Source: Elusimicrobium sp. An273
GTDB taxonomy: Bacteria; Elusimicrobiota; Elusimicrobia; Elusimicrobiales; Elusimicrobiaceae
NCBI RefSeq assembly: GCF_002159705.1
Contig: NZ_NFJD01000001.1
Coordinates: 186,001 to 250,000 of the forward strand
Direction: 5' to 3'
Length of the DNA stretch: 64,000 bases
In this document: in pieces, positions 40,894 through 50,913 of the stretch
Position numbering within the stretch: the first letter of the stretch is position 1
How the letters are laid out: each line of letters begins with the position of its first letter
Program-made: the position numbers and the translations under genes
Notes under the pieces: generated by a model
The model's database searches: none
The model's input: only the letters and a program-made list of their open reading frames with translations
What the model was told of the DNA's origin: nothing

Positions 40894-40919
40894 ATCCGGC
40901 CGCCCGGCCGGATTTTTTA
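40894..40919 (+). terminator. terminator of radC-cyuA
   Basis: Stem ATCCGGCCG/CGGCCGGAT followed by TTTTTTATT. Its T run abuts the end of the convergent comF. Confidence 0.85.
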
Positions 40920-41648
40920 TTCCCGCGCAAACGTATACGCCAGCACACGGCGGGCCCCGGCCGCTTTTAAAGCGGCGGCACAGCCTTCCAGCGTGGCGCC
41001 GGTGGTGGCCACGTCGTCTATCAGCAAAACGGTTTTCCCTTTTACCCATTCGGGCCGACGGCAGGCAAAGGCGCCCGCCATATTTTGCAGTCTTCCCGCG
41101 CGGCCCAGCTTGGTTTGGCTGACGGTGTTGCGCACCCGCACAAGCGCCTTGGTTTGCACGGGCAGGCCCACCTGCGGCGCAAAAAAACGTGCCAGCAATT
41201 CGCTTTGGTTATATCCGCGCTTGCGCCCGCGGCGCGGGAAAAGCGGCACCGGCATCACCACTTCGGCCGCGGCCAGCTCGGGATACCGGGCAAAGCGTTT
41301 GGCCATCAGCCCGCCCATATACCGGGCCAAATAGTCGGCCCCGGCATATTTAAGCGCGTGCACCAACGCCCGCGAAGAGGTGTTAAACACAAAAGCCGAA
41401 CGGATCACCCGGCACTTATACGCGCGTTCCTTGCTGCCGCGGCAGGCATAGCAATGCGCCCCGCCCTCTGTAAGCACCGCCCCGCAGCGGCGGCAAATAT
41501 GCGGCCCGGGCGTTTTAAGCCCTTGGGCGCACGCGGCGCACAGCGGCTCCTCTCGCCTCCACGGCAGGTCGCAGCCGCAGGCAAAACAAGTGCGCGGAAA
41601 GAAAAAATGCAACAGCAGCCGCCACAGTGTCTTTAAAGTTTTTTTCAT
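40917..41648 (-). CDS. comF: ComF-family phosphoribosyltransferase-like protein
   Basis: This 243-aa protein has an N-terminal zinc-ribbon region with paired cysteines (CFACG, CAAC, CRRCG, CYAC). A PRTase domain follows with the PRPP loop VLLIDDVATTGAT and the RGYNQSELLA motif. ComF proteins assist DNA uptake in competent bacteria, with type IV pilus machinery. It starts only 4 nt after the stop of the giant barrel gene, so it is the last gene of that operon. Confidence 0.92.
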   Translation of the reverse strand: MKKTLKTLWRLLLHFFFPRTCFACGCDLPWRREEPLCAACAQGLKTPGPHICRRCGAVLTEGGAHCYACRGSKERAYKCRVIRSAFVFNTSSRALVHALKYAGADYLARYMGGLMAKRFARYPELAAAEVVMPVPLFPRRGRKRGYNQSELLARFFAPQVGLPVQTKALVRVRNTVSQTKLGRAGRLQNMAGAFACRRPEWVKGKTVLLIDDVATTGATLEGCAAALKAAGARRVLAYTFARE

Positions 41649-41652
41649 ACCG

Positions 41653-44600
41653 TCAGAATTGCACCGTTACGTTGGCCGCCACATTGTAGGCCGTATAATC
41701 TTCGGTTTCCACATACGCGTGGTTGAGCAGTGTAAATCCGCCGCCTACGGTAAAGCGCAGGTTTTGCGAAAGTTCATAATCCAGCGAGGTGCTGAAATCA
41801 AATTTTTTGTAGTTTTCCGTTACTTCCACCGGAGAGCGTTTGTCCGTATACGAAAAAGTGGTGTTCCAAATCACGCGGTTGGTGGCGTTGTACATTTTAT
41901 TGATAAACGGCAGTTTAAAACCGCGCGGGAGGTTGAAGTCCCAGCGGAGGTTCAGGCTGGGGGTAGTTTCGGTACTGCTTTCGCTGATTTGGCCCGCCAC
42001 CAGCCATTTTTCGTGCGACGTGTGAAGCAGTTTGGGCGTAACGCGCATGGAGCCGATGTAAAAAGAAGTCTGGGCCGAAATATCGTTATCCTCAATGCGC
42101 TCCAAACTGGTGCCGGCGCGCAAGTCCGTCTTGTCGGAGGTTTTGCGCGTATAGTTAAGCACCGTGTCAAAATAATTAAACAGCATAAACCGCAAGTCCC
42201 CCCCGTACTGGGTGGTGTATTGTTCGTCCGTTCCCGGGGTGTTTTGCTCCACCCAGCTGTAGCGCAGTTTTAAGTTGGACGAGCTGAACCAGCGGCCGCC
42301 GTAAAAGAATTTTTCCAAGTCGGAAATGGAAAACGTCATATCCGGCAAGGTTAAGCTGGTGGAATCATACAGCGTGCCGGTTTGGTCGTTGGTTTGCAGG
42401 GTGCGGGTAAAGTTGTTAATCAGCGAAATCGTCTTTAACGGGGCGGCGGCGCCTTCCAGGTTGTACTGCGAAAGCGGACTCCAGCGCTGGGTAGAGGTGA
42501 ACGTGTCGCGCAAGGTTAAGCTCTTGCGATAGCCGTATTCCCCCACGTCTTTTAAGGAACTGCGGATCCACAAATCTTTGCGGGAGTCGTAGTCGCTGTC
42601 CACGTCGTACCAGGAGTCCGCGTCCTGGATGCGGTAGCTGGAGGAAATGACAAACGTGTTAAAGAGCTTGCTGTTGGGCAGGATTTCATTTCCGTTTAGC
42701 GTCAGCGAGATACCGCCGTCTGCGTTGCGGTTGATGGTTTTTACTTCTCCCACCCCCACGGTTACCTGCTGCCCGGCGGCGTTAAGCGTTTTGGCCGTCA
42801 GGTTGTTGCTTTCCACGGTACTGATGTTGTAGCTGACGGACGGCGCCAGCCATTTGGTGATTTTCCACGTGCTGTTAAAACCGGTGTTCTGGCTCATGGC
42901 TTTGGGATAGCTGATGTTTTGGGCGGACGTTTCCTGATAGGTAGTGCGGTCTTCCTTGCTTTTGCTTAAACTGTAACTGGGGGTAAAGTTAAAATTATTC
43001 GTCGGCTGGTACGTTACCTTCATGTTCATTTTTTGGGTGTTTTCGTCGGTATTGTAGTAATTGTCGGACTCCAAATGCCGCGTCCGGTCATAATTAATGG
43101 ACGAGTCGGTAATGTGGTACCCGGCCGTAATGTTTTTAAACGTGCCGGCCGAATGCGTCAGCGTGGCGCCGTAGGTGCGGGCGTCGTCCTTGCGTTTCAT
43201 CGCGTCGTATTCCACCTGATCGGTGGTGTATTCCAAGCCGATTTGAGGGAAGTTATCTTTCTTAAAGTCGCCGCGCACGACCGCGCTTTGCCGGTCTACC
43301 TTGCCTTTATCCAACAGGCTGATGGTGTTGTAATCCGTCGTGTCCGTTACCAAGGGGGTTACGGTGCTGGAACGGGTTAAATTGGCCTGCATGGGAAATT
43401 CTTTAATTTTATCCACTTTCAAAAAGTATTCTTCCTGCGTGACTTCCTGATTTTTGGACACGGCAAGCGGCGTTTCAAAATTGCTGTCCTGATACTTATA
43501 CTTGGCCCCCGCACTGCCCCAGCCGTCCAGGTTTACCACCACATCTCCCTTATAGGCCGTGCCTTCCAGCGTAATGGATTCGGCCAAGTGAATTACATTC
43601 AGCCACACTTCGCCCTGGCTGCCCAGTGCGCTTACCTGATCCAGCACCGCCGTGTACGATTTGCCGTTTTCCAGCGTAACGGCATAAGAGCCGTCCGCCT
43701 GCGTGGAAACGGTTTGCACCGTCCCCGCGGAAACCGTAAAATTGGCATCGCCGTACAGCGCCAGCCCCGGCTGCAAAATGCCGCGGGCAAAAAGGGTTTG
43801 CGTGTTATCCTGCTGCGTAAACGTGTACGTATAGCGGCTTTCGGGCTGCACGCCCGTAAACATCAAGCTGACTTCTCTAAAGTTAAGCAATCCGCCCGGC
43901 CCCCGGTGGTGCACGACACGCACATTGTAGGAGGGATCCGATATATTTTCAAACGAGTCGGGCACGCCGTCCATATCCGTATCCACCATCCGCAGGGAAA
44001 TAAGACGCCAGCCGCGGAAATCGGTCGGCACGATGATTTTGTCAAAATTGTTTTCCGTACCCACTTTTAAAAAGAACTCCGTGCCGGGCTGGTTTAACGG
44101 GCGGGCGCCGCCCTGCTCCATGGCGCCGTGCAGCAAAAAGCGGAATTCCCGGTGCTGGGTAAAATCCATACTGGAGAAGTTGCGGTTGGCGTAGCGTTCG
44201 CCCGCCGGATTGTTTTCCGTGCTGTCGTCCCGCACGGGGGAAAGGCCGATGGTATTAAATTTAATGTTCAGGGCCTGATCCAAGGCGTTGGCAGAGCCGG
44301 TGGCCTGTTTATAGTTATTAACCGAGCCGTACAAATAATTAAATACCGTCAGCCCGTCGCCAGTGGTATCGGCAAAGATCGGCTCGTAGTTGGTGTCGTC
44401 CACATTGTTGATGCCCGCCACGGAGAAAACATCCGGATCGGTTTCGTTTTGGGCGTTCCACGCCGTGCCGGACAAAGACACGTTGGCAATTTTAATTTGC
44501 CCTTTTAATTTGCCGGCGCGTTTCATTTCGTCGGTTAATTTAAGCGTAATACGCAGGTGGCGCACGGCCGTCCATTGTTCCTTTTCTTCCGTAGACAATA

Positions 44601-47307
44601 AAAGCGGCATCGTGTAGGTCGTCCACGCGGTGTTGGATGCCGTATTGTTCACCATTCCGTCAATAGACGCCCCCGCAAAACCGAAGTTGCCCTGGGCGGG
44701 CATACTTTCGGCGTCATAGGCGCCGTTGCCGTTTAAATCCTGCGTATCAATGCGCCCGTTGGGCTGGGATTCGGGGTTGTAGACGTTGTTTACAAACGGA
44801 TTATAGCGTTCTTCCGTCCCGTCCGGGTTGGTAAACAGCCAGCCGATATCTTCATTCGGCGCCAGGGTGTTGCGGCAGTAAATGTCTTCGGTCTTGGGAA
44901 CGTTAGTGCCGCATTGGGTATCCATTCCGTTGGAAGAATCGGAGTATTCGGAAATATTACCGAAAGCAAAGTTGACCTGCGGGCCGTTTTCTTCGCCCAG
45001 CATCGTCAGTTCAAAAGAGGTTTTGCTGGACAAATCCATCCCGCTTTGGCTCAGCGGATAGACGATGGAAACCTCGTCGCGCCCTTCCTCGTTTAAAAAC
45101 GGCTGCCCGGTTGTTTGGTCAATGGTGGTGGCCGGAAGGGTGAAATCGTAATTTAACACCAGCACTTGCTGTTTGTCGTTATAATTGGCGATGGAGTGCG
45201 GGTTGATTTCCAGCGAAGGCAAATCCTGCGTGTCCCAATGGATAGAGTTTAAGAAAGCGGGTTTGCCGCTGGGGTTGGAAGCAAAAATCCAGTCCCTGAA
45301 AATGCGCGAACCGGCCACTTGTTCGGTGGCTTCGTTCATGCTGTCCACCATGGCGTAGCCAAACAGGTTTTGATTTTTTTTGCTTTTGGCCACTTCCGCG
45401 CTGAAATCCACCGACAGCGGCTCTGCCAGCCGAATGTCTTTGCCGTTAATATCCGCCCCGTAAACGAGCAAATCCTTGGAATAATTGCCCACCTGCGGAA
45501 CGGTGTTGGGTTTTTCGCCGCTTTCTTTAAGCATGGTGGCGCCCATGATGATTTTGTCAAACAGTTTATAATCCAGCCGCCCGCCCATCACCGAGTTGTT
45601 GGAACTGGAGCCGGTGGTGGTATCGTAGGTAATGTCTATGACGGAATTTTCGGTAATTTCATCCCCTTTATAAAAAGTGATAAAGCCGGAGGTATAGTCA
45701 ATATAATAATCGTTGTTGCGCGTGAGGGTGCGGCCGTTTAATTTGACGGTTTCGGATTCAATCACGATGCCCGACTCGATAAAGTAGGTTTTTACGGTGG
45801 ATTCGTACTGAATTTTAAACGTCAGGTTTTTAGAGGACGTCGGCGTGGCGCCGTAGAGCCCGGTGTCGTTAATGCGGTAGGCCAGGTCAAAAATACCGCT
45901 GTCAAAATCCACGTCAATATACGTGGGATAGGTATAATAGGGGCTGGTAAGCGCCTGGCCGTTGGCGTCTTGCAATTGCAAAATAAAATTGCCTTTTCCG
46001 TTGTCCTGCGTAATTTTTTGCGCGCCGATATTGTAATACGTTTTCAGCTCCAGTTTGTTGGCGGTCTCGGTTACCATGGCGGGGCCGGTTTCAATGGATT
46101 TGTCGTTGGCGGTTTTAATCAGTTTAATGGTGCCGGTTTTCCCCAAGACATTGCTTAACTGGTTGCCGCGGGTGTCGCGGTAATCCACGGCGATAACGCT
46201 CTCCGCCGTAACCGTGCGTTTAAACGTAATGATGCCGCTTGCATAATCCACCGTATAGTCCACGCCGCGCGTTAAAAGCTGCCACTTGGCGGGATATTCC
46301 GTACTGCCCAAAGCGTCGGTGGCAATGCGGTCTATCGGCACGTAATCGGAGGAGGTGGAAGAATCGTTGCTGTAGTAATAAATTTCTTCCGTGCCGGGCG
46401 AGATGCTGCCCATCACGGTGCGCCACTCATCATACGCGGTGCGGTCTACCGGGTAGCGGATGCTGCCGCCGTCGTCAATATACGGGCGGACGTTGCCGCC
46501 GAACGTCAAATCGTAATACGTGCGGCGCAGATAGGAAGTGTCCGCCAGCGAAATAATTTCCGACACGCTGCTGCCGATAAATTGCTTTTGTTTGCTGGAA
46601 CCTTTGGTTTGCGAGCCGATTAAATACAAATTGGCGTTTTTGTGCTGCAAGTGCATTTTGGCGCCGAACAGTTGCTTTTGATAGGCGATAAACTCCGTTT
46701 CCGGCAGGGACAAATTAATATCCCCGAATTCAGCCAGCTGCACCAGTTCCCCCGGTTTGCCGCGGTAAGCCACGGAAATGGTTTTTTCCTCTTCGCGCTG
46801 GTCGTCGTAGTCGATATCCACAAACACGCGCTCCAAAATTTTACCCTGCATTTTAAGCTGCATTTCCTGCTGCATTTCAAACGTGCTGGTGTTGCGTTTA
46901 TTGATGTCGTTATTGGAGTCTTTTTTGTATTTCTGCGCCGCCATTTGGAACCCCAGCACATAGCGCCCGGTTAAAGCGATGCTGGTGCCGTAAAGCGGCA
47001 GGGAAAGAGTGGGATTTAAAAGCGTCAAGTCCGGAATCGGCTCCGGCTCGTTGTCCAGCTTATACGAGCCCTCCACCGAAGTAACCGCCTGGCGCCAAAA
47101 CTCGTTGGTAAATTTAAGCAGCTGGGCGTCGTCCGGCGGGTCTTGAATCGTAAGGGCCTCTTCTTCTTTTTCGGCTTGGTCTTCGGCAAAAATATCGTAT
47201 TGATCGCGGTCTACCAGGGTGTACGGCAGCGATTCGGCGCCGGCCGGAGGGGCGGCGACGAATTGCAAAATAAGCAGCAGGGCCACAGGCAGCCGCAGTA
47301 TTTTCAT
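41653..47307 (-). CDS. giant SprA-like outer-membrane barrel protein
   Basis: This 1884-aa protein has a signal peptide (MKILRLPVALLLILQFVAAP) and ends in VAANVTVQF. A terminal Phe is usual for BAM-inserted barrels. The segment GELVQLAEFGDINLSLPETE followed by QKQLFGAKMHLQHKNANLYL (about 185-225) resembles the SprA_N pattern (GNVSLP...SLFGIKAQLQ). Two copies of a DYxxDYxSGxITF motif (near 352 and 542) also recall SprA, the 36-strand channel of the type IX secretion system. A DTDMDGVPDSFEN calcium-type repeat lies near 1110; the last 500 residues are amphipathic strands. It is about 500 residues shorter than Bacteroidota SprA. It could be a secretion channel or surface barrel; no other T9SS gene is seen here. 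Confidence 0.72.
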   Translation of the reverse strand: MKILRLPVALLLILQFVAAPPAGAESLPYTLVDRDQYDIFAEDQAEKEEEALTIQDPPDDAQLLKFTNEFWRQAVTSVEGSYKLDNEPEPIPDLTLLNPTLSLPLYGTSIALTGRYVLGFQMAAQKYKKDSNNDINKRNTSTFEMQQEMQLKMQGKILERVFVDIDYDDQREEEKTISVAYRGKPGELVQLAEFGDINLSLPETEFIAYQKQLFGAKMHLQHKNANLYLIGSQTKGSSKQKQFIGSSVSEIISLADTSYLRRTYYDLTFGGNVRPYIDDGGSIRYPVDRTAYDEWRTVMGSISPGTEEIYYYSNDSSTSSDYVPIDRIATDALGSTEYPAKWQLLTRGVDYTVDYASGIITFKRTVTAESVIAVDYRDTRGNQLSNVLGKTGTIKLIKTANDKSIETGPAMVTETANKLELKTYYNIGAQKITQDNGKGNFILQLQDANGQALTSPYYTYPTYIDVDFDSGIFDLAYRINDTGLYGATPTSSKNLTFKIQYESTVKTYFIESGIVIESETVKLNGRTLTRNNDYYIDYTSGFITFYKGDEITENSVIDITYDTTTGSSSNNSVMGGRLDYKLFDKIIMGATMLKESGEKPNTVPQVGNYSKDLLVYGADINGKDIRLAEPLSVDFSAEVAKSKKNQNLFGYAMVDSMNEATEQVAGSRIFRDWIFASNPSGKPAFLNSIHWDTQDLPSLEINPHSIANYNDKQQVLVLNYDFTLPATTIDQTTGQPFLNEEGRDEVSIVYPLSQSGMDLSSKTSFELTMLGEENGPQVNFAFGNISEYSDSSNGMDTQCGTNVPKTEDIYCRNTLAPNEDIGWLFTNPDGTEERYNPFVNNVYNPESQPNGRIDTQDLNGNGAYDAESMPAQGNFGFAGASIDGMVNNTASNTAWTTYTMPLLLSTEEKEQWTAVRHLRITLKLTDEMKRAGKLKGQIKIANVSLSGTAWNAQNETDPDVFSVAGINNVDDTNYEPIFADTTGDGLTVFNYLYGSVNNYKQATGSANALDQALNIKFNTIGLSPVRDDSTENNPAGERYANRNFSSMDFTQHREFRFLLHGAMEQGGARPLNQPGTEFFLKVGTENNFDKIIVPTDFRGWRLISLRMVDTDMDGVPDSFENISDPSYNVRVVHHRGPGGLLNFREVSLMFTGVQPESRYTYTFTQQDNTQTLFARGILQPGLALYGDANFTVSAGTVQTVSTQADGSYAVTLENGKSYTAVLDQVSALGSQGEVWLNVIHLAESITLEGTAYKGDVVVNLDGWGSAGAKYKYQDSNFETPLAVSKNQEVTQEEYFLKVDKIKEFPMQANLTRSSTVTPLVTDTTDYNTISLLDKGKVDRQSAVVRGDFKKDNFPQIGLEYTTDQVEYDAMKRKDDARTYGATLTHSAGTFKNITAGYHITDSSINYDRTRHLESDNYYNTDENTQKMNMKVTYQPTNNFNFTPSYSLSKSKEDRTTYQETSAQNISYPKAMSQNTGFNSTWKITKWLAPSVSYNISTVESNNLTAKTLNAAGQQVTVGVGEVKTINRNADGGISLTLNGNEILPNSKLFNTFVISSSYRIQDADSWYDVDSDYDSRKDLWIRSSLKDVGEYGYRKSLTLRDTFTSTQRWSPLSQYNLEGAAAPLKTISLINNFTRTLQTNDQTGTLYDSTSLTLPDMTFSISDLEKFFYGGRWFSSSNLKLRYSWVEQNTPGTDEQYTTQYGGDLRFMLFNYFDTVLNYTRKTSDKTDLRAGTSLERIEDNDISAQTSFYIGSMRVTPKLLHTSHEKWLVAGQISESSTETTPSLNLRWDFNLPRGFKLPFINKMYNATNRVIWNTTFSYTDKRSPVEVTENYKKFDFSTSLDYELSQNLRFTVGGGFTLLNHAYVETEDYTAYNVAANVTVQF

Positions 47308-47390
47308 AAGAAGGAAAAATACCTCATTATTTCATTCTATAATATTTACCCTTTCTCTACCGTCTGTATTTGTTTCCTGTTTTGCCCATC

Positions 47391-47417
47391 AAAAAGCCCC
47401 CTCTCGGGGGGCTTTCT
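47391..47417 (-). terminator. terminator of the secreted protease gene
   Basis: Stem AAAGCCCCC/GGGGGGCTTT with a small loop. On the minus strand it is followed by TTTTTGATG. It separates the protease from the giant barrel gene. Confidence 0.85.
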
Positions 47418-47433
47418 TAAAAACGAATTTTTA

Positions 47434-48606
47434 TTAAGAAATACCGACGGAAACCGTCCGATCCACAAACCGATGTTTTACGATTTCAAATTCCAAAAAA
47501 TCGCCATGCTGCACGTCGGGAAACAACCACTCCGCATGTTCCGGGTCAAACCGGCCGTTATATTTGGGCAGATATACTTTGTGCAGCAGCGTGCCGCCTT
47601 GGTCAAAGTGATACACCCAGCCGATCGTTTCTTCCGCTTGGATTTGCAGCACGTCCCGGCCATACACCTTATACGTAAGCGGCGCCGGCAGTTTGCCTTG
47701 TTCGTAGCTTTCCAACAGCCACTCCAGCGCTTGGCGGGCATTGACCGCAAACACCTGCCCTTGCTCCGGGTCATGGCCGCTGTAAATACCGGCCACTTGC
47801 CCTTGCGCATTTAAAACGGGACTGCCGCACAAACCGTTAAATTCTTCCGATACGTCCGGGCTGTCCATCACCATTTTAATTCCTTGCGCCAGCGTTACTT
47901 TTAACTCATCTATTCGTGCAAATCCTTCGCAGGCATACGGGCTGCCCCACACCACCAGTTCGCTGCCTTTCTCCGGCAAAGAGGGGGCTATCGTTAGCGG
48001 CCGCACATACGCTTGGGCCTCTTGCGGCAAAGCGATGATGGCTGCGTCCGGCGCATTAATGCCGAACGAGCCCGCCGCATTGACAATTAACCCGTTATAC
48101 ACAACCGGGGCCCCTTTTTCCGGATACGTCCGCACCGCCACGGTATTTCCTTTCCGCCCCACCACATGATACGATACCACCGCATACAATCGCCCCGAAC
48201 GCGACTGTACCACAAATCCGCTTCCCATCAGGTCTCCACTGGCTCTGCCCACCACTTCCACTAACGAGGCGCGGATATGCTTTTCGGTCTGGGCCAAAGA
48301 AGTTGTTTCGGCAGGAGCCTGCAGGCCGCCGAGGGTTTGGCGGGCAATCGTCCGCTGCAGTGGGCTGAAATCAGCCACCTCCTGTTCGTTTCGGACGGGC
48401 GGTTTAACGACGGCGGTTTTGGCCGTTTGAAAAGCGCTTTGCGCCGCCAAAGAAGCCGGGGGAATATAGCGAAGATTAAGCAGGATATTTTTTTCTATTT
48501 TGGCGGGAGCCAGCCCGCCGCGCAGGAAATTCTTAGCCGGAAGTTTCTGGGCTGCTGCAAAGGGGACTGTCAGCAAGCAAGATAATACGAAAAGAAACGC
48601 TCTCAT
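47434..48606 (-). CDS. secreted trypsin-fold protease with Cys at the nucleophile position
   Basis: This 390-aa protein has a signal peptide (MRAFLFVLSCLLTVPFAAA), an approximately 100-residue spacer, and a chymotrypsin/HtrA-like domain. The triad positions are His147 (VVSYHVVGRKG), Asp187 (NAPDAAIIALP) and Cys260 in NGLCGSPVLNAQGQVAGI, where S1 proteases have GNSGGP. A Cys nucleophile is known from viral 3C proteases; it could also mean an inactive or differently active enzyme. The C-terminal 100 residues form a further domain without recognised motifs. The ATG at 48606 lies 6 nt after TATAAT with no Shine-Dalgarno. Confidence 0.82.
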   Translation of the reverse strand: MRAFLFVLSCLLTVPFAAAQKLPAKNFLRGGLAPAKIEKNILLNLRYIPPASLAAQSAFQTAKTAVVKPPVRNEQEVADFSPLQRTIARQTLGGLQAPAETTSLAQTEKHIRASLVEVVGRASGDLMGSGFVVQSRSGRLYAVVSYHVVGRKGNTVAVRTYPEKGAPVVYNGLIVNAAGSFGINAPDAAIIALPQEAQAYVRPLTIAPSLPEKGSELVVWGSPYACEGFARIDELKVTLAQGIKMVMDSPDVSEEFNGLCGSPVLNAQGQVAGIYSGHDPEQGQVFAVNARQALEWLLESYEQGKLPAPLTYKVYGRDVLQIQAEETIGWVYHFDQGGTLLHKVYLPKYNGRFDPEHAEWLFPDVQHGDFLEFEIVKHRFVDRTVSVGIS

Positions 48607-48618
48607 ATCTATATTATA
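48607..48618 (-). promoter_or_regulatory. leaderless-type promoter of the secreted protease
   Basis: On the minus strand, consensus TATAAT is followed by ATAGAT and then ATG, so the predicted transcript starts at the initiation codon. Confidence 0.65.
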
Positions 48619-48715
48619 TCCGCTGCATCCGGCGGCCGCCAGAGCCAAAAGGCCTATAAAAGCGCTGGGTCTTGCCTCTCTTCAGAGATTTCTCCTGCGG
48701 GCGGGTTTGATATTT

Positions 48716-48731: not shown

Positions 48732-49826
48732 ATGCGCGTCAGCATTTTTACCAAATACATTGCAAAAAGTCTCCTTACGTTTTTTATAGGCGTATTGGGA
48801 GTGCTGACGTTTGTTATTTTTATGAACCAGTTCATCCGTATCCTGGATATGGCCATGACGTACGGCACCAGTTTCGGGTGGATTGTATCTTCTCTTCTTA
48901 ACGTGCTGCCCAATGTGTTTTGCTTAAGCGCGCCGATGGCCTTTCAGATTGCCATTTTGCTGACGCTGACCAATATGAGCGAACACGGCGAACTTATTGC
49001 CTTGCGCGCGGCGGGATTTTCGTTTAAAGAGATTATCCGGCCGCTTTTTATTTGCGCCCTGGGGCTGACGGTGGTAATGTTTGTCATGCAAAATTGGCTG
49101 ACTCCGCGCAGCTACAAACGCCTCTTAGACCGCCGCAGCGAAGCCCGCAGTAAAATTACCAAAGTAAATTTGGAACCCAAAACATTCTTAAATTTAGGCG
49201 AATGGGATTTGTATTTGGAAAGCTTGGACAAAGACACGGATGTCGCCCGGCAAATTCATCTGATTAAAAAAGAAGATAACGGCGCCCTGAGCACCAAAGT
49301 AAACGCTTCTTCCGGCAAAGTGATTTTAACCCATACGGCCATCGGCCTGCAGCTCAAAGACGGGCAAATGCAGCGCCTGGACGACAAAGATCCTTCCTCT
49401 TTTATCGCCGCCAATTTTGACGAATACATTATGAGCATTTCCCTCTTAAAGGCCCAATACCGCCGTTTGCGCGTAGGGGAAATGTCCACCACCAAACTGC
49501 TTAGACGCATGCGCCAAATGCCTTTAGATCCCGAAACCATCAACGAATACCGCACCGAAATCAGCATGCGCAACGTACTCGCTTTCTCCCCGATTGTATT
49601 GCTGTTTGTCAGCTGTCCGATCGGATTCTCCTTCGGCAAAAGAACCAATAAGGGCTGGGGAATGCTCTTTAGCGTGATTATCATTTTTACGTTCTATTTA
49701 TTAATGACGCTGGGCCTTTCTTTAGGGAAAAAATACGGATGGATTGCCTACCCCGGCCCGTGGCTGCCGATTATAGCCGGCATTTTTGCGGCCCGTTACC
49801 TATGGAAAAAGAGGTTAAACATTTAA
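48732..49826 (+). CDS. lptF: LPS export permease LptF
   Basis: This 364-aa YjgP/YjgQ-family permease has three N-terminal membrane helices, a periplasmic jellyroll-like domain (about 130-260) and three C-terminal helices. FTKYIAKSLLTFFIGVLGVL and VLPNVFCLSAPMAFQIAILL are typical. With LptG and LptB it extracts LPS from the inner membrane. It is the first of a two-gene operon and starts without a Shine-Dalgarno. LptF/LptG assignment follows order only. Confidence 0.9.
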   Translation: MRVSIFTKYIAKSLLTFFIGVLGVLTFVIFMNQFIRILDMAMTYGTSFGWIVSSLLNVLPNVFCLSAPMAFQIAILLTLTNMSEHGELIALRAAGFSFKEIIRPLFICALGLTVVMFVMQNWLTPRSYKRLLDRRSEARSKITKVNLEPKTFLNLGEWDLYLESLDKDTDVARQIHLIKKEDNGALSTKVNASSGKVILTHTAIGLQLKDGQMQRLDDKDPSSFIAANFDEYIMSISLLKAQYRRLRVGEMSTTKLLRRMRQMPLDPETINEYRTEISMRNVLAFSPIVLLFVSCPIGFSFGKRTNKGWGMLFSVIIIFTFYLLMTLGLSLGKKYGWIAYPGPWLPIIAGIFAARYLWKKRLNI

Positions 49827-49827
49827 T

Positions 49828-50913
49828 ATGCGGATTTATTTCTATATCGCCCGAAAATTCTGGGGGCCCTTTTTCTTTGCCCTAGGCGTATTTACGGCAT
49901 TGGTGGTACTGGGCGACACCTTTGAAAAAATGAAAAACCTGGGCAACGGCGTAACCACAATGATGGATCTGCTTTCTTATTCGCTGGTTACGTTTCCCAA
50001 TTGGCTGGCCACCATTATGCCCGTTGCCTGCCTGCTGGGGGCCATTTCCGTCATTTCCGAAATGGTGGCCAACGGCGAATGGACGGCCTGTGTGGCCAGC
50101 GGCTTTGCCCCGCGCCAGTTGTTTAAACCCGTTATCCTGTGTATTTTAGGGGTCGTGTTGGCGACTATGGTGCTGCAGGAATTTGTCATTCCCCCCTTAA
50201 ACGCCAAGTCGGAGCGTATTTACAATACCCGCATCAACCCCTCGGAAGACCCCTTTAACCCCGATGCCGAACGTGATGTTATTTTAAAAATTTCCCCCAA
50301 CCAGATGTTATTTGCCAAAGAGGTAAACCTGAAAGAGGGCACCATGAAACGCGTTTCGCTGGACACCTACGACTCCGGCTGGAACATTGCCAACCAAATT
50401 GTAGCCGATCAGATGCTATGGAACCCGGACACCAAAAGCTGGCTGTTTTCCAAGGGCATTCAGCGCGTTTTTATAGATTCCATGGACACCACGGAAGAAT
50501 CGTTTGAAACGGCGGATTCGCCCGTCAATTTAAATCCTTCCGAAATGGCCATAGACCGCACGGACAACAAGCTCCTCAGCATCCGCGAGCTCTACAAACG
50601 CATTCACTTCTTTAAAAAAAGCGGTCTTTCTTCCTATGCGGCGCAAACGATGCTCCAGTCCAAACTGGCCACGCCGTTTGTTACGCTTATTATGTGCCTG
50701 CTCGGCATGCCGTTTGCCATCAGCGTCCGGCGCAAAAGCAAAATTCTAAACATTATTGCTTCGCTTGTGATTGCTTTTACGTTTTGGTGGCTGATTACGA
50801 TGTTTACATCCATCGGAGAAAACGGCTACATCAACCCTTATCTGGCCGGTTGGGGCCCCGTACTGGTATTTGCGGTAGTCGTATTTTTTGAATTTAAATG
50901 GCTTAAGCTCTAA
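49828..50913 (+). CDS. lptG: LPS export permease LptG
   Basis: This 361-aa protein of the same YjgP/YjgQ fold has six membrane helices around a periplasmic domain. VTFPNWLATIMPVACLLGAI matches the conserved second-helix region, and the C-terminal half ends WGPVLVFAVVVFFEFKWLKL. It follows lptF with a single base between stop and start. No lptB ATPase or lptC is in the window, so the operon is only the permease pair. Confidence 0.9.
   Translation: MRIYFYIARKFWGPFFFALGVFTALVVLGDTFEKMKNLGNGVTTMMDLLSYSLVTFPNWLATIMPVACLLGAISVISEMVANGEWTACVASGFAPRQLFKPVILCILGVVLATMVLQEFVIPPLNAKSERIYNTRINPSEDPFNPDAERDVILKISPNQMLFAKEVNLKEGTMKRVSLDTYDSGWNIANQIVADQMLWNPDTKSWLFSKGIQRVFIDSMDTTEESFETADSPVNLNPSEMAIDRTDNKLLSIRELYKRIHFFKKSGLSSYAAQTMLQSKLATPFVTLIMCLLGMPFAISVRRKSKILNIIASLVIAFTFWWLITMFTSIGENGYINPYLAGWGPVLVFAVVVFFEFKWLKL

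What the first reader, a model, noticed from the sequence alone, without database searches (positions are those of the whole stretch)
41653..47307. SprA-like giant barrel outside Bacteroidota
The 1884-residue protein carries SprA_N-like motifs (GDINLSLP...QLFGAKMHLQ), repeated DYxxDYxSGxITF motifs, a signal peptide and a C-terminal Phe. SprA is the type IX secretion channel of Bacteroidota. No GldK-N, SprE, PorV or C-terminal-signal proteins are visible here, so this may be a separate secretion or surface system built on the same barrel. It is co-transcribed with comF.
Basis: partly seen in the sequence, partly recalled or inferred. Interest (0 to 1): 0.65.

Follow-up and report, generated by a model that had tools for sequence, protein, structure and literature searches.

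The report
Type 9-like protein exporter in Elusimicrobiota
A gut Elusimicrobiota bacterium, like nearly its whole phylum, carries the giant outer-membrane channel of the type 9 protein exporter, and in that phylum each exported protein often has its own carrier gene beside it, although reviews say this exporter is absent outside the Bacteroidota and their close relatives.

Summary
The 1,884-aa minus-strand ORF is a true, divergent SprA/Sov homologue. TIGR04189 matches at 1.4e-31 (below its equivalog cut-off). An Elusimicrobiota profile finds only F. johnsoniae SprA in the PDB (1.3e-38). AlphaFold models of both halves match SprA best in Foldseek. It is single-copy, in 129 of 150 sampled Elusimicrobiota genomes, and usually set in comF-sprA<>lptF-lptG.

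Those genes lie elsewhere: PorV is in all 129 SprA-positive genomes, with over a dozen and up to about 60 candidate copies in many free-living lineages. Type A sorting domains end large surface proteins whose genes directly precede a porV gene (69 pairs in 12 genomes against 0.25 expected). This genome keeps one such pair, split over a contig break. GldL, GldM and PorU-type peptidase were not detected, but these negatives are weak.

Best reading: an ancestral, phylum-wide T9SS-like export pathway in which each cargo is co-expressed with its own carrier, perhaps with a different energy source or none of the known motor. I file it as a new variant of a known kind. The papers I could search do not describe T9SS in Elusimicrobiota.

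The parts
41653..47307 (-). SprA/Sov-like outer-membrane translocon, 1,884 aa: signal peptide, giant barrel interrupted by an extracellular jelly-roll (CBM-like) domain at about residues 660-951, C-terminal Phe
40917..41648 (-). comF-like phosphoribosyltransferase, starts 4 nt after the sprA stop codon; next to sprA in most lineages sampled
48732..49826 (+). lptF, LPS-export permease, divergent from sprA
49828..50913 (+). lptG, LPS-export permease
47434..48648 (-). secreted trypsin-like protease upstream of sprA; lineage-specific, probably a bystander
47390..47415 (-). intrinsic-terminator-like hairpin (GCCCCCCGAGAGGGGGC followed by T run) between the protease gene and sprA, which suggests that sprA has its own promoter
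   Evidence: read directly from the sequence

Best explanation
The gene encodes the outer-membrane translocon of a type 9-like protein export pathway that is ancestral to Elusimicrobiota. Shown by computation: it is an SprA homologue; PorV-family carriers occur in all SprA-positive genomes sampled; type A sorting domains end large secreted proteins, and those genes commonly sit directly upstream of, and on the same strand as, a porV gene. Inferred: cargo crosses the inner membrane by Sec, its C-terminal domain enters the SprA pore and is captured there by the PorV made from the same operon, and the cargo-PorV complex leaves sideways into the outer membrane, where the dedicated PorV anchors the cargo. 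Also inferred, with lower confidence: since one carrier is made per cargo and neither a PorU-type sortase nor GldL/GldM was detected, the carrier may not be recycled, and release is driven by an unidentified source or by none of the known motor. This gut genome has reduced the system to one SprA, one PorV and one evident cargo, placed ahead of a Tad-type pilus operon.
For: Homology: TIGR04189 1.4e-31, 18 of 18 orthologues match; an 18-sequence profile hits only SprA in the PDB, 1.3e-38, in three colinear stretches. Fold: the N-half model has SprA as its top four hits, E to 2.9e-40, next hit 2e-3; VIA-align Z 14.9, rmsd 8.4, 806 residues aligned to SprA 132-1496. C-half model: SprA top four, E to 5e-23; 864 residues aligned to SprA 942-2377, Z 14.0, rmsd 12.5. 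Distribution: SprA in 129 of 150 genomes; PorV in all 129 of them, and all 11 PorV-negative genomes lack SprA (Fisher p 2e-11, not corrected for phylogeny). CTD: over the TIGR04183 cut-off in all 12 genomes of the sister family. Pairing: 74 of 150 listed CTDs lie within 1.1 kb of a PorV, all on the same strand, 69 with PorV downstream; 0.25 expected. Pairing in 24 of 40 PorV loci of 40 other genomes across the phylum. Own genome: PorV at C2:327225-328193, preceded by the tail KVARGVYFGLVDFKAQNGREHCQKVVKILVP; the 5' end of the same gene is at the end of C1. Close relatives show the pair intact.
Against: The score is under the SprA equivalog cut-off. In this genome no CTD reaches TIGR04183; the tail of close relatives is recognised only by a profile built from the sister family (domain i-E 1e-7 to 1e-10). 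No export experiment exists. Ten SprA-negative genomes still have PorV-family hits. 16 of 40 strong PorV genes had no CTD recognised directly upstream. PorV belongs to a larger FadL-like barrel family, so weak hits may not be carriers; one of the hits in this genome is a FadL.
Confidence: 0.82

Rival explanations
1. It is a conventional T9SS with a full GldKLMN motor, SprE and PorU that have diverged beyond recognition; nothing is different except the phylum.
For: SprA itself scores only 108.8 bits, so fast-evolving motor proteins could be missed; the GldM and C25 searches rang in no control genome.
Against: No GldM hit in 31 genomes. GldL hits are below cut-off, and unrelated controls such as B. 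subtilis and archaea also ring below cut-off. PorV and CTD, also envelope parts, are found easily in the same genomes. The one-carrier-per-type-A-cargo layout is itself different.
Confidence: 0.35
2. The barrel serves lipid or LPS export with the divergent lptF-lptG genes, a relative or replacement of LptD rather than a protein exporter.
For: The sprA<>lptF-lptG arrangement is conserved in most of the 14 deep loci examined; LptD (PF04453) was not found in this genome.
Against: Both model halves match SprA, not LptD. LptE is in the window (weak hit) and an LptD-like ORF sits beside sprA in one deep lineage, so LPS assembly seems separate. SprA tracks PorV in the genomes sampled.
Confidence: 0.05
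3. The barrel is a decayed or repurposed SprA in the gut lineage, kept for surface architecture and no longer exporting.
For: This lineage has only one convincing PorV and one evident cargo against 16-36 PorV hits in the sister family.
Against: The ORF is intact, with 46-92% identity to gut and other family members and invariant residues shared with free-living lineages; the cargo-PorV pair is intact in complete or near-complete relatives.
Confidence: 0.06

Closest known systems
T9SS translocon SprA/Sov-PorV (F. johnsoniae, P. gingivalis; PDB 6h3i, 8gl8; PMC10994853)
   Same: Homologous translocon, PorV-family carrier, type A-like CTD cargo with Sec signal peptides
   Different: Type A cargos in Bacteroidota are all recognised by PorV (PMC12618676); here there are many PorV paralogues, commonly one per cargo gene. 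Motor and sortase were not found, accessory parts not searched. Shorter barrel protein (about 1,700-2,060 against 2,403 aa)
Type B CTD with cognate PorP/SprF shuttle (PMC12618676)
   Same: Cargo gene often linked to the gene of its own carrier
   Different: Here the carrier is of the PorV family and the signal is type A-like, not type B with PorP/SprF
LptD LPS translocon
   Same: Large outer-membrane barrel; gene neighbours are LPS-export genes
   Different: No match of fold or sequence to LptD above SprA

Membership tests
T9SS | SprA/Sov translocon | tested here: met
   Homology and fold
T9SS | PorV-family carrier in the genome | tested here: met
   92.6 bits over cut-off 90; in all SprA-positive genomes sampled
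T9SS | Cargo with C-terminal sorting domain | tested here: met
   TIGR04183 over cut-off in all 12 sister-family genomes. In the window's own genome only a homologous tail, not reaching TIGR04183
T9SS | GldL/GldM motor | tested here: inconclusive
   No GldM hit in 31 genomes but no positive control; GldL hits all under cut-off, with the control genomes ringing too
T9SS | PorU-type C25 sortase | tested here: inconclusive
   No PF01364 hit in 31 genomes, no positive control
T9SS | GldK, GldN, SprE/PorW, Plug, PPI, PorZ | not tested
T9SS | 36-strand closed barrel | tested here: inconclusive
   Protein exceeds the 1,200-aa fold limit. The two overlapping halves show about 9 and 31 long strands, not all of them transmembrane, in keeping with a barrel of SprA size
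TIGR04189 SprA equivalog | Score of 200 bits or more | tested here: not met
   108.8 bits; 0 of 150 genomes over the cut-off in the six-frame search
Pfam SprA_N (PF14349) | Domain hit in this protein | tested here: not met
   No hit in P0001 up to E 10; one of 18 orthologues hits at 1.2e-7
LptD | LptD family hit in this protein | tested here: not met
   No LptD family among the hits of P0001; SprA is the best Foldseek match for both halves

The most novel reading that the evidence does not exclude
A phylum-wide, ancestral T9SS-like exporter that works without the GldKLMN rotary motor and without a sortase: each type A cargo is co-produced with its own PorV, which is loaded once in the SprA pore and stays as the permanent outer-membrane anchor, so no carrier recycling is needed.
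Probability: 0.4. Interest if true: 0.78.

Novelty: new variant of a known kind. Interest (0 to 1): 0.64.

Why it matters
Reviews hold that T9SS genes are absent outside the FCB group (PMC11285876, PMC11205867). A near-universal SprA-PorV-CTD set in Elusimicrobiota, in conserved synteny and diverging with taxonomy, would place the translocon much deeper in bacterial evolution and predicts the surface proteome of a largely uncultured phylum. The cargo-carrier gene pairs give a direct way to test which steps need the motor, since release from the translocon is thought to be the energy-requiring step in Bacteroidota (PMC10994853).

Tried and rejected
LptD replacement: LptD was not found by Pfam in this genome, but LptE is present as a weak hit, an LptD-like ORF lies next to sprA in one lineage, and the fold is SprA's. 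Second PorV hit in the genome (C3, 428 aa): this is FadL, not PorV. Trypsin-like protease as partner: separated by a terminator-like hairpin and absent from most relatives. VIA-align of the C half ranks several smaller barrels (BtuB, OprC) with Z equal to or above SprA's; they align about 220-460 residues against 864 for SprA, so I read them as generic barrel matches. Paper searches for T9SS or PorV with Elusimicrobi gave no description of such a system; the library lacks most subscription papers and all preprints.

Full report
What is in the window. The ORF at 41653-47307 on the minus strand encodes 1,884 residues with a Sec-type signal peptide and a C-terminal phenylalanine. The genome is an Elusimicrobiota MAG of 1.5 Mb; named close relatives are 'uncultured Elusimicrobiales' and 'Elusimicrobium sp.' MAGs, many labelled as rumen, rectum, colon or faeces. 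The gene lies between comF (4 nt downstream) and the divergent pair lptF-lptG. A secreted trypsin-like protease gene sits just upstream but is separated by a terminator-like hairpin and occurs only in part of the gut lineage.

It is an SprA homologue. NCBIfam TIGR04189 matches at 1.4e-31 with 108.8 bits, well under the 200-bit equivalog cut-off; Pfam SprA_N misses this protein but hits one of 18 orthologues, and all 18 hit TIGR04189. A profile of the 18 phylum-wide orthologues, used against all PDB sequences, returns only F. johnsoniae SprA (1.3e-38) in three colinear stretches. The protein is too long to fold whole here. The model of residues 95-1200 (pLDDT 80, pTM 0.51) has the four SprA entries as its only strong Foldseek hits (2.9e-40; next 2e-3) and aligns over 806 residues to SprA 132-1496 (Z 14.9, rmsd 8.4). 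The model of residues 700-1884 (pLDDT 83, pTM 0.49) also has SprA first (5e-23) and aligns over 864 residues to SprA 942-2377 (Z 14.0, rmsd 12.5), though smaller barrels reach similar or higher Z there over fewer residues. The jelly-roll domain inserted after the first strands resembles carbohydrate-binding modules.

It is a phylum trait. TIGR04189 matches in 129 of 150 Elusimicrobiota genomes; the genomes without a match belong to one family, many of them under 1.4 Mb, which suggests reductive loss. Identity falls with taxonomic distance (62-74% to other gut members, 46% to another genus of the family, 35-37% within order and class, about 27-31% across the phylum). In most of 14 loci taken from other genera, families and classes, comF-sprA and the divergent lptF-lptG are kept together while the flanks beyond change. 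Both points favour vertical inheritance.

The partners are present, outside the window. PorV-family genes (NF033709) occur in 139 of 150 genomes, including all 129 with SprA; the 11 without PorV all lack SprA (Fisher p 2e-11, not corrected for phylogeny). Many free-living lineages have over a dozen, up to about 60 first-look candidates. Type A sorting domains (TIGR04183) are over cut-off in all 12 genomes of the sister family. Of 150 listed CTDs there, 74 lie within 1.1 kb of a listed PorV, every one on the same strand, and 69 have PorV directly downstream; 0.25 would be expected by chance. With a CTD profile built from nine of these, 24 of 40 strong PorV genes from 40 other genomes have a CTD protein ending 80-560 bp upstream of the matched PorV start, on the same strand. 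Cargos include a kelch/fibronectin-III protein and an M4-type metalloprotease.

In this genome one PorV-family protein reaches the curated cut-off (92.6 bits). Directly upstream, at the end of contig C2, is the tail KVARGVYFGLVDFKAQNGREHCQKVVKILVP; the 5' part of the same gene is at the end of contig C1, the window's contig. In relatives with unbroken contigs the cargo (about 1,400-1,800 aa) is followed by porV within tens of bases, and then by Tad-type pilus genes. So the gut lineage appears to have kept a minimal set.

What was not found. GldM had no hit in 31 genomes, GldL only sub-threshold hits of the kind also seen in unrelated controls, and C25 peptidase no hit. No control genome with a known T9SS was available, so absence is not established. 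GldK, GldN, SprE, Plug, PPI and PorZ were not searched.

How it most likely works. By analogy with the Bacteroidota translocon, where the substrate's CTD is bound by a PorV docked in the SprA pore and release of the carrier-substrate complex is the energy-requiring step (PMC10994853), cargo here should be exported by Sec, captured by its own PorV in SprA and released sideways into the outer membrane. Co-translation of cargo and carrier suggests that the carrier is specific and perhaps permanent. In F. johnsoniae dedicated carriers are known for type B cargos with PorP/SprF, whereas type A cargos all use PorV (PMC12618676). The export steps and the anchor role are inferred; the parts and their pairing are shown.

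Known or new. The papers available state that T9SS is confined to the FCB group (PMC11205867) and absent from other phyla (PMC11285876). I found none that describes it in Elusimicrobiota, but subscription papers and preprints were not searchable, and from memory automated annotation already names single PorV and sorting-domain proteins in this phylum. I therefore call it a new variant of a known kind, not a new kind.

Noticed in passing
window 47434-48648 (-); L047, L052: Secreted trypsin-like protease between lptF and sprA; 49-63% identical between species whose neighbouring genes are mostly 80-97% identical, and in two or three tandem copies in L047 and L052.
   Followed up: partly
G000 C1:1-1396 and C2:328303-328396: The two contig ends hold the two ends of one cargo gene, so C1 (the window's contig) and C2 are neighbours in the chromosome; the assembly broke inside the cargo gene, as it seems to do near the same gene in G049 and G011.
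   Followed up: partly
sister-family genomes G020 C6, G029 C50, G019 C20, G028 C15: CTD-bearing open frames of 13,077, 8,413, 6,998 and 6,824 aa: giant surface proteins.
   Followed up: no
L094, L134, L136, L137, L139: In the gut family the cargo-PorV pair stands directly upstream of a Tad/Flp-type pilus operon; functional link unknown.
   Followed up: no
G074: 99% complete genome with 13 or more PorV genes but no SprA hit; assembly gap or real loss.
   Followed up: no
L101 13992-17135: Next to lptG in a deep lineage: an M6-type metalloprotease with T9SS-like tail and a PorV-family protein.
   Followed up: partly
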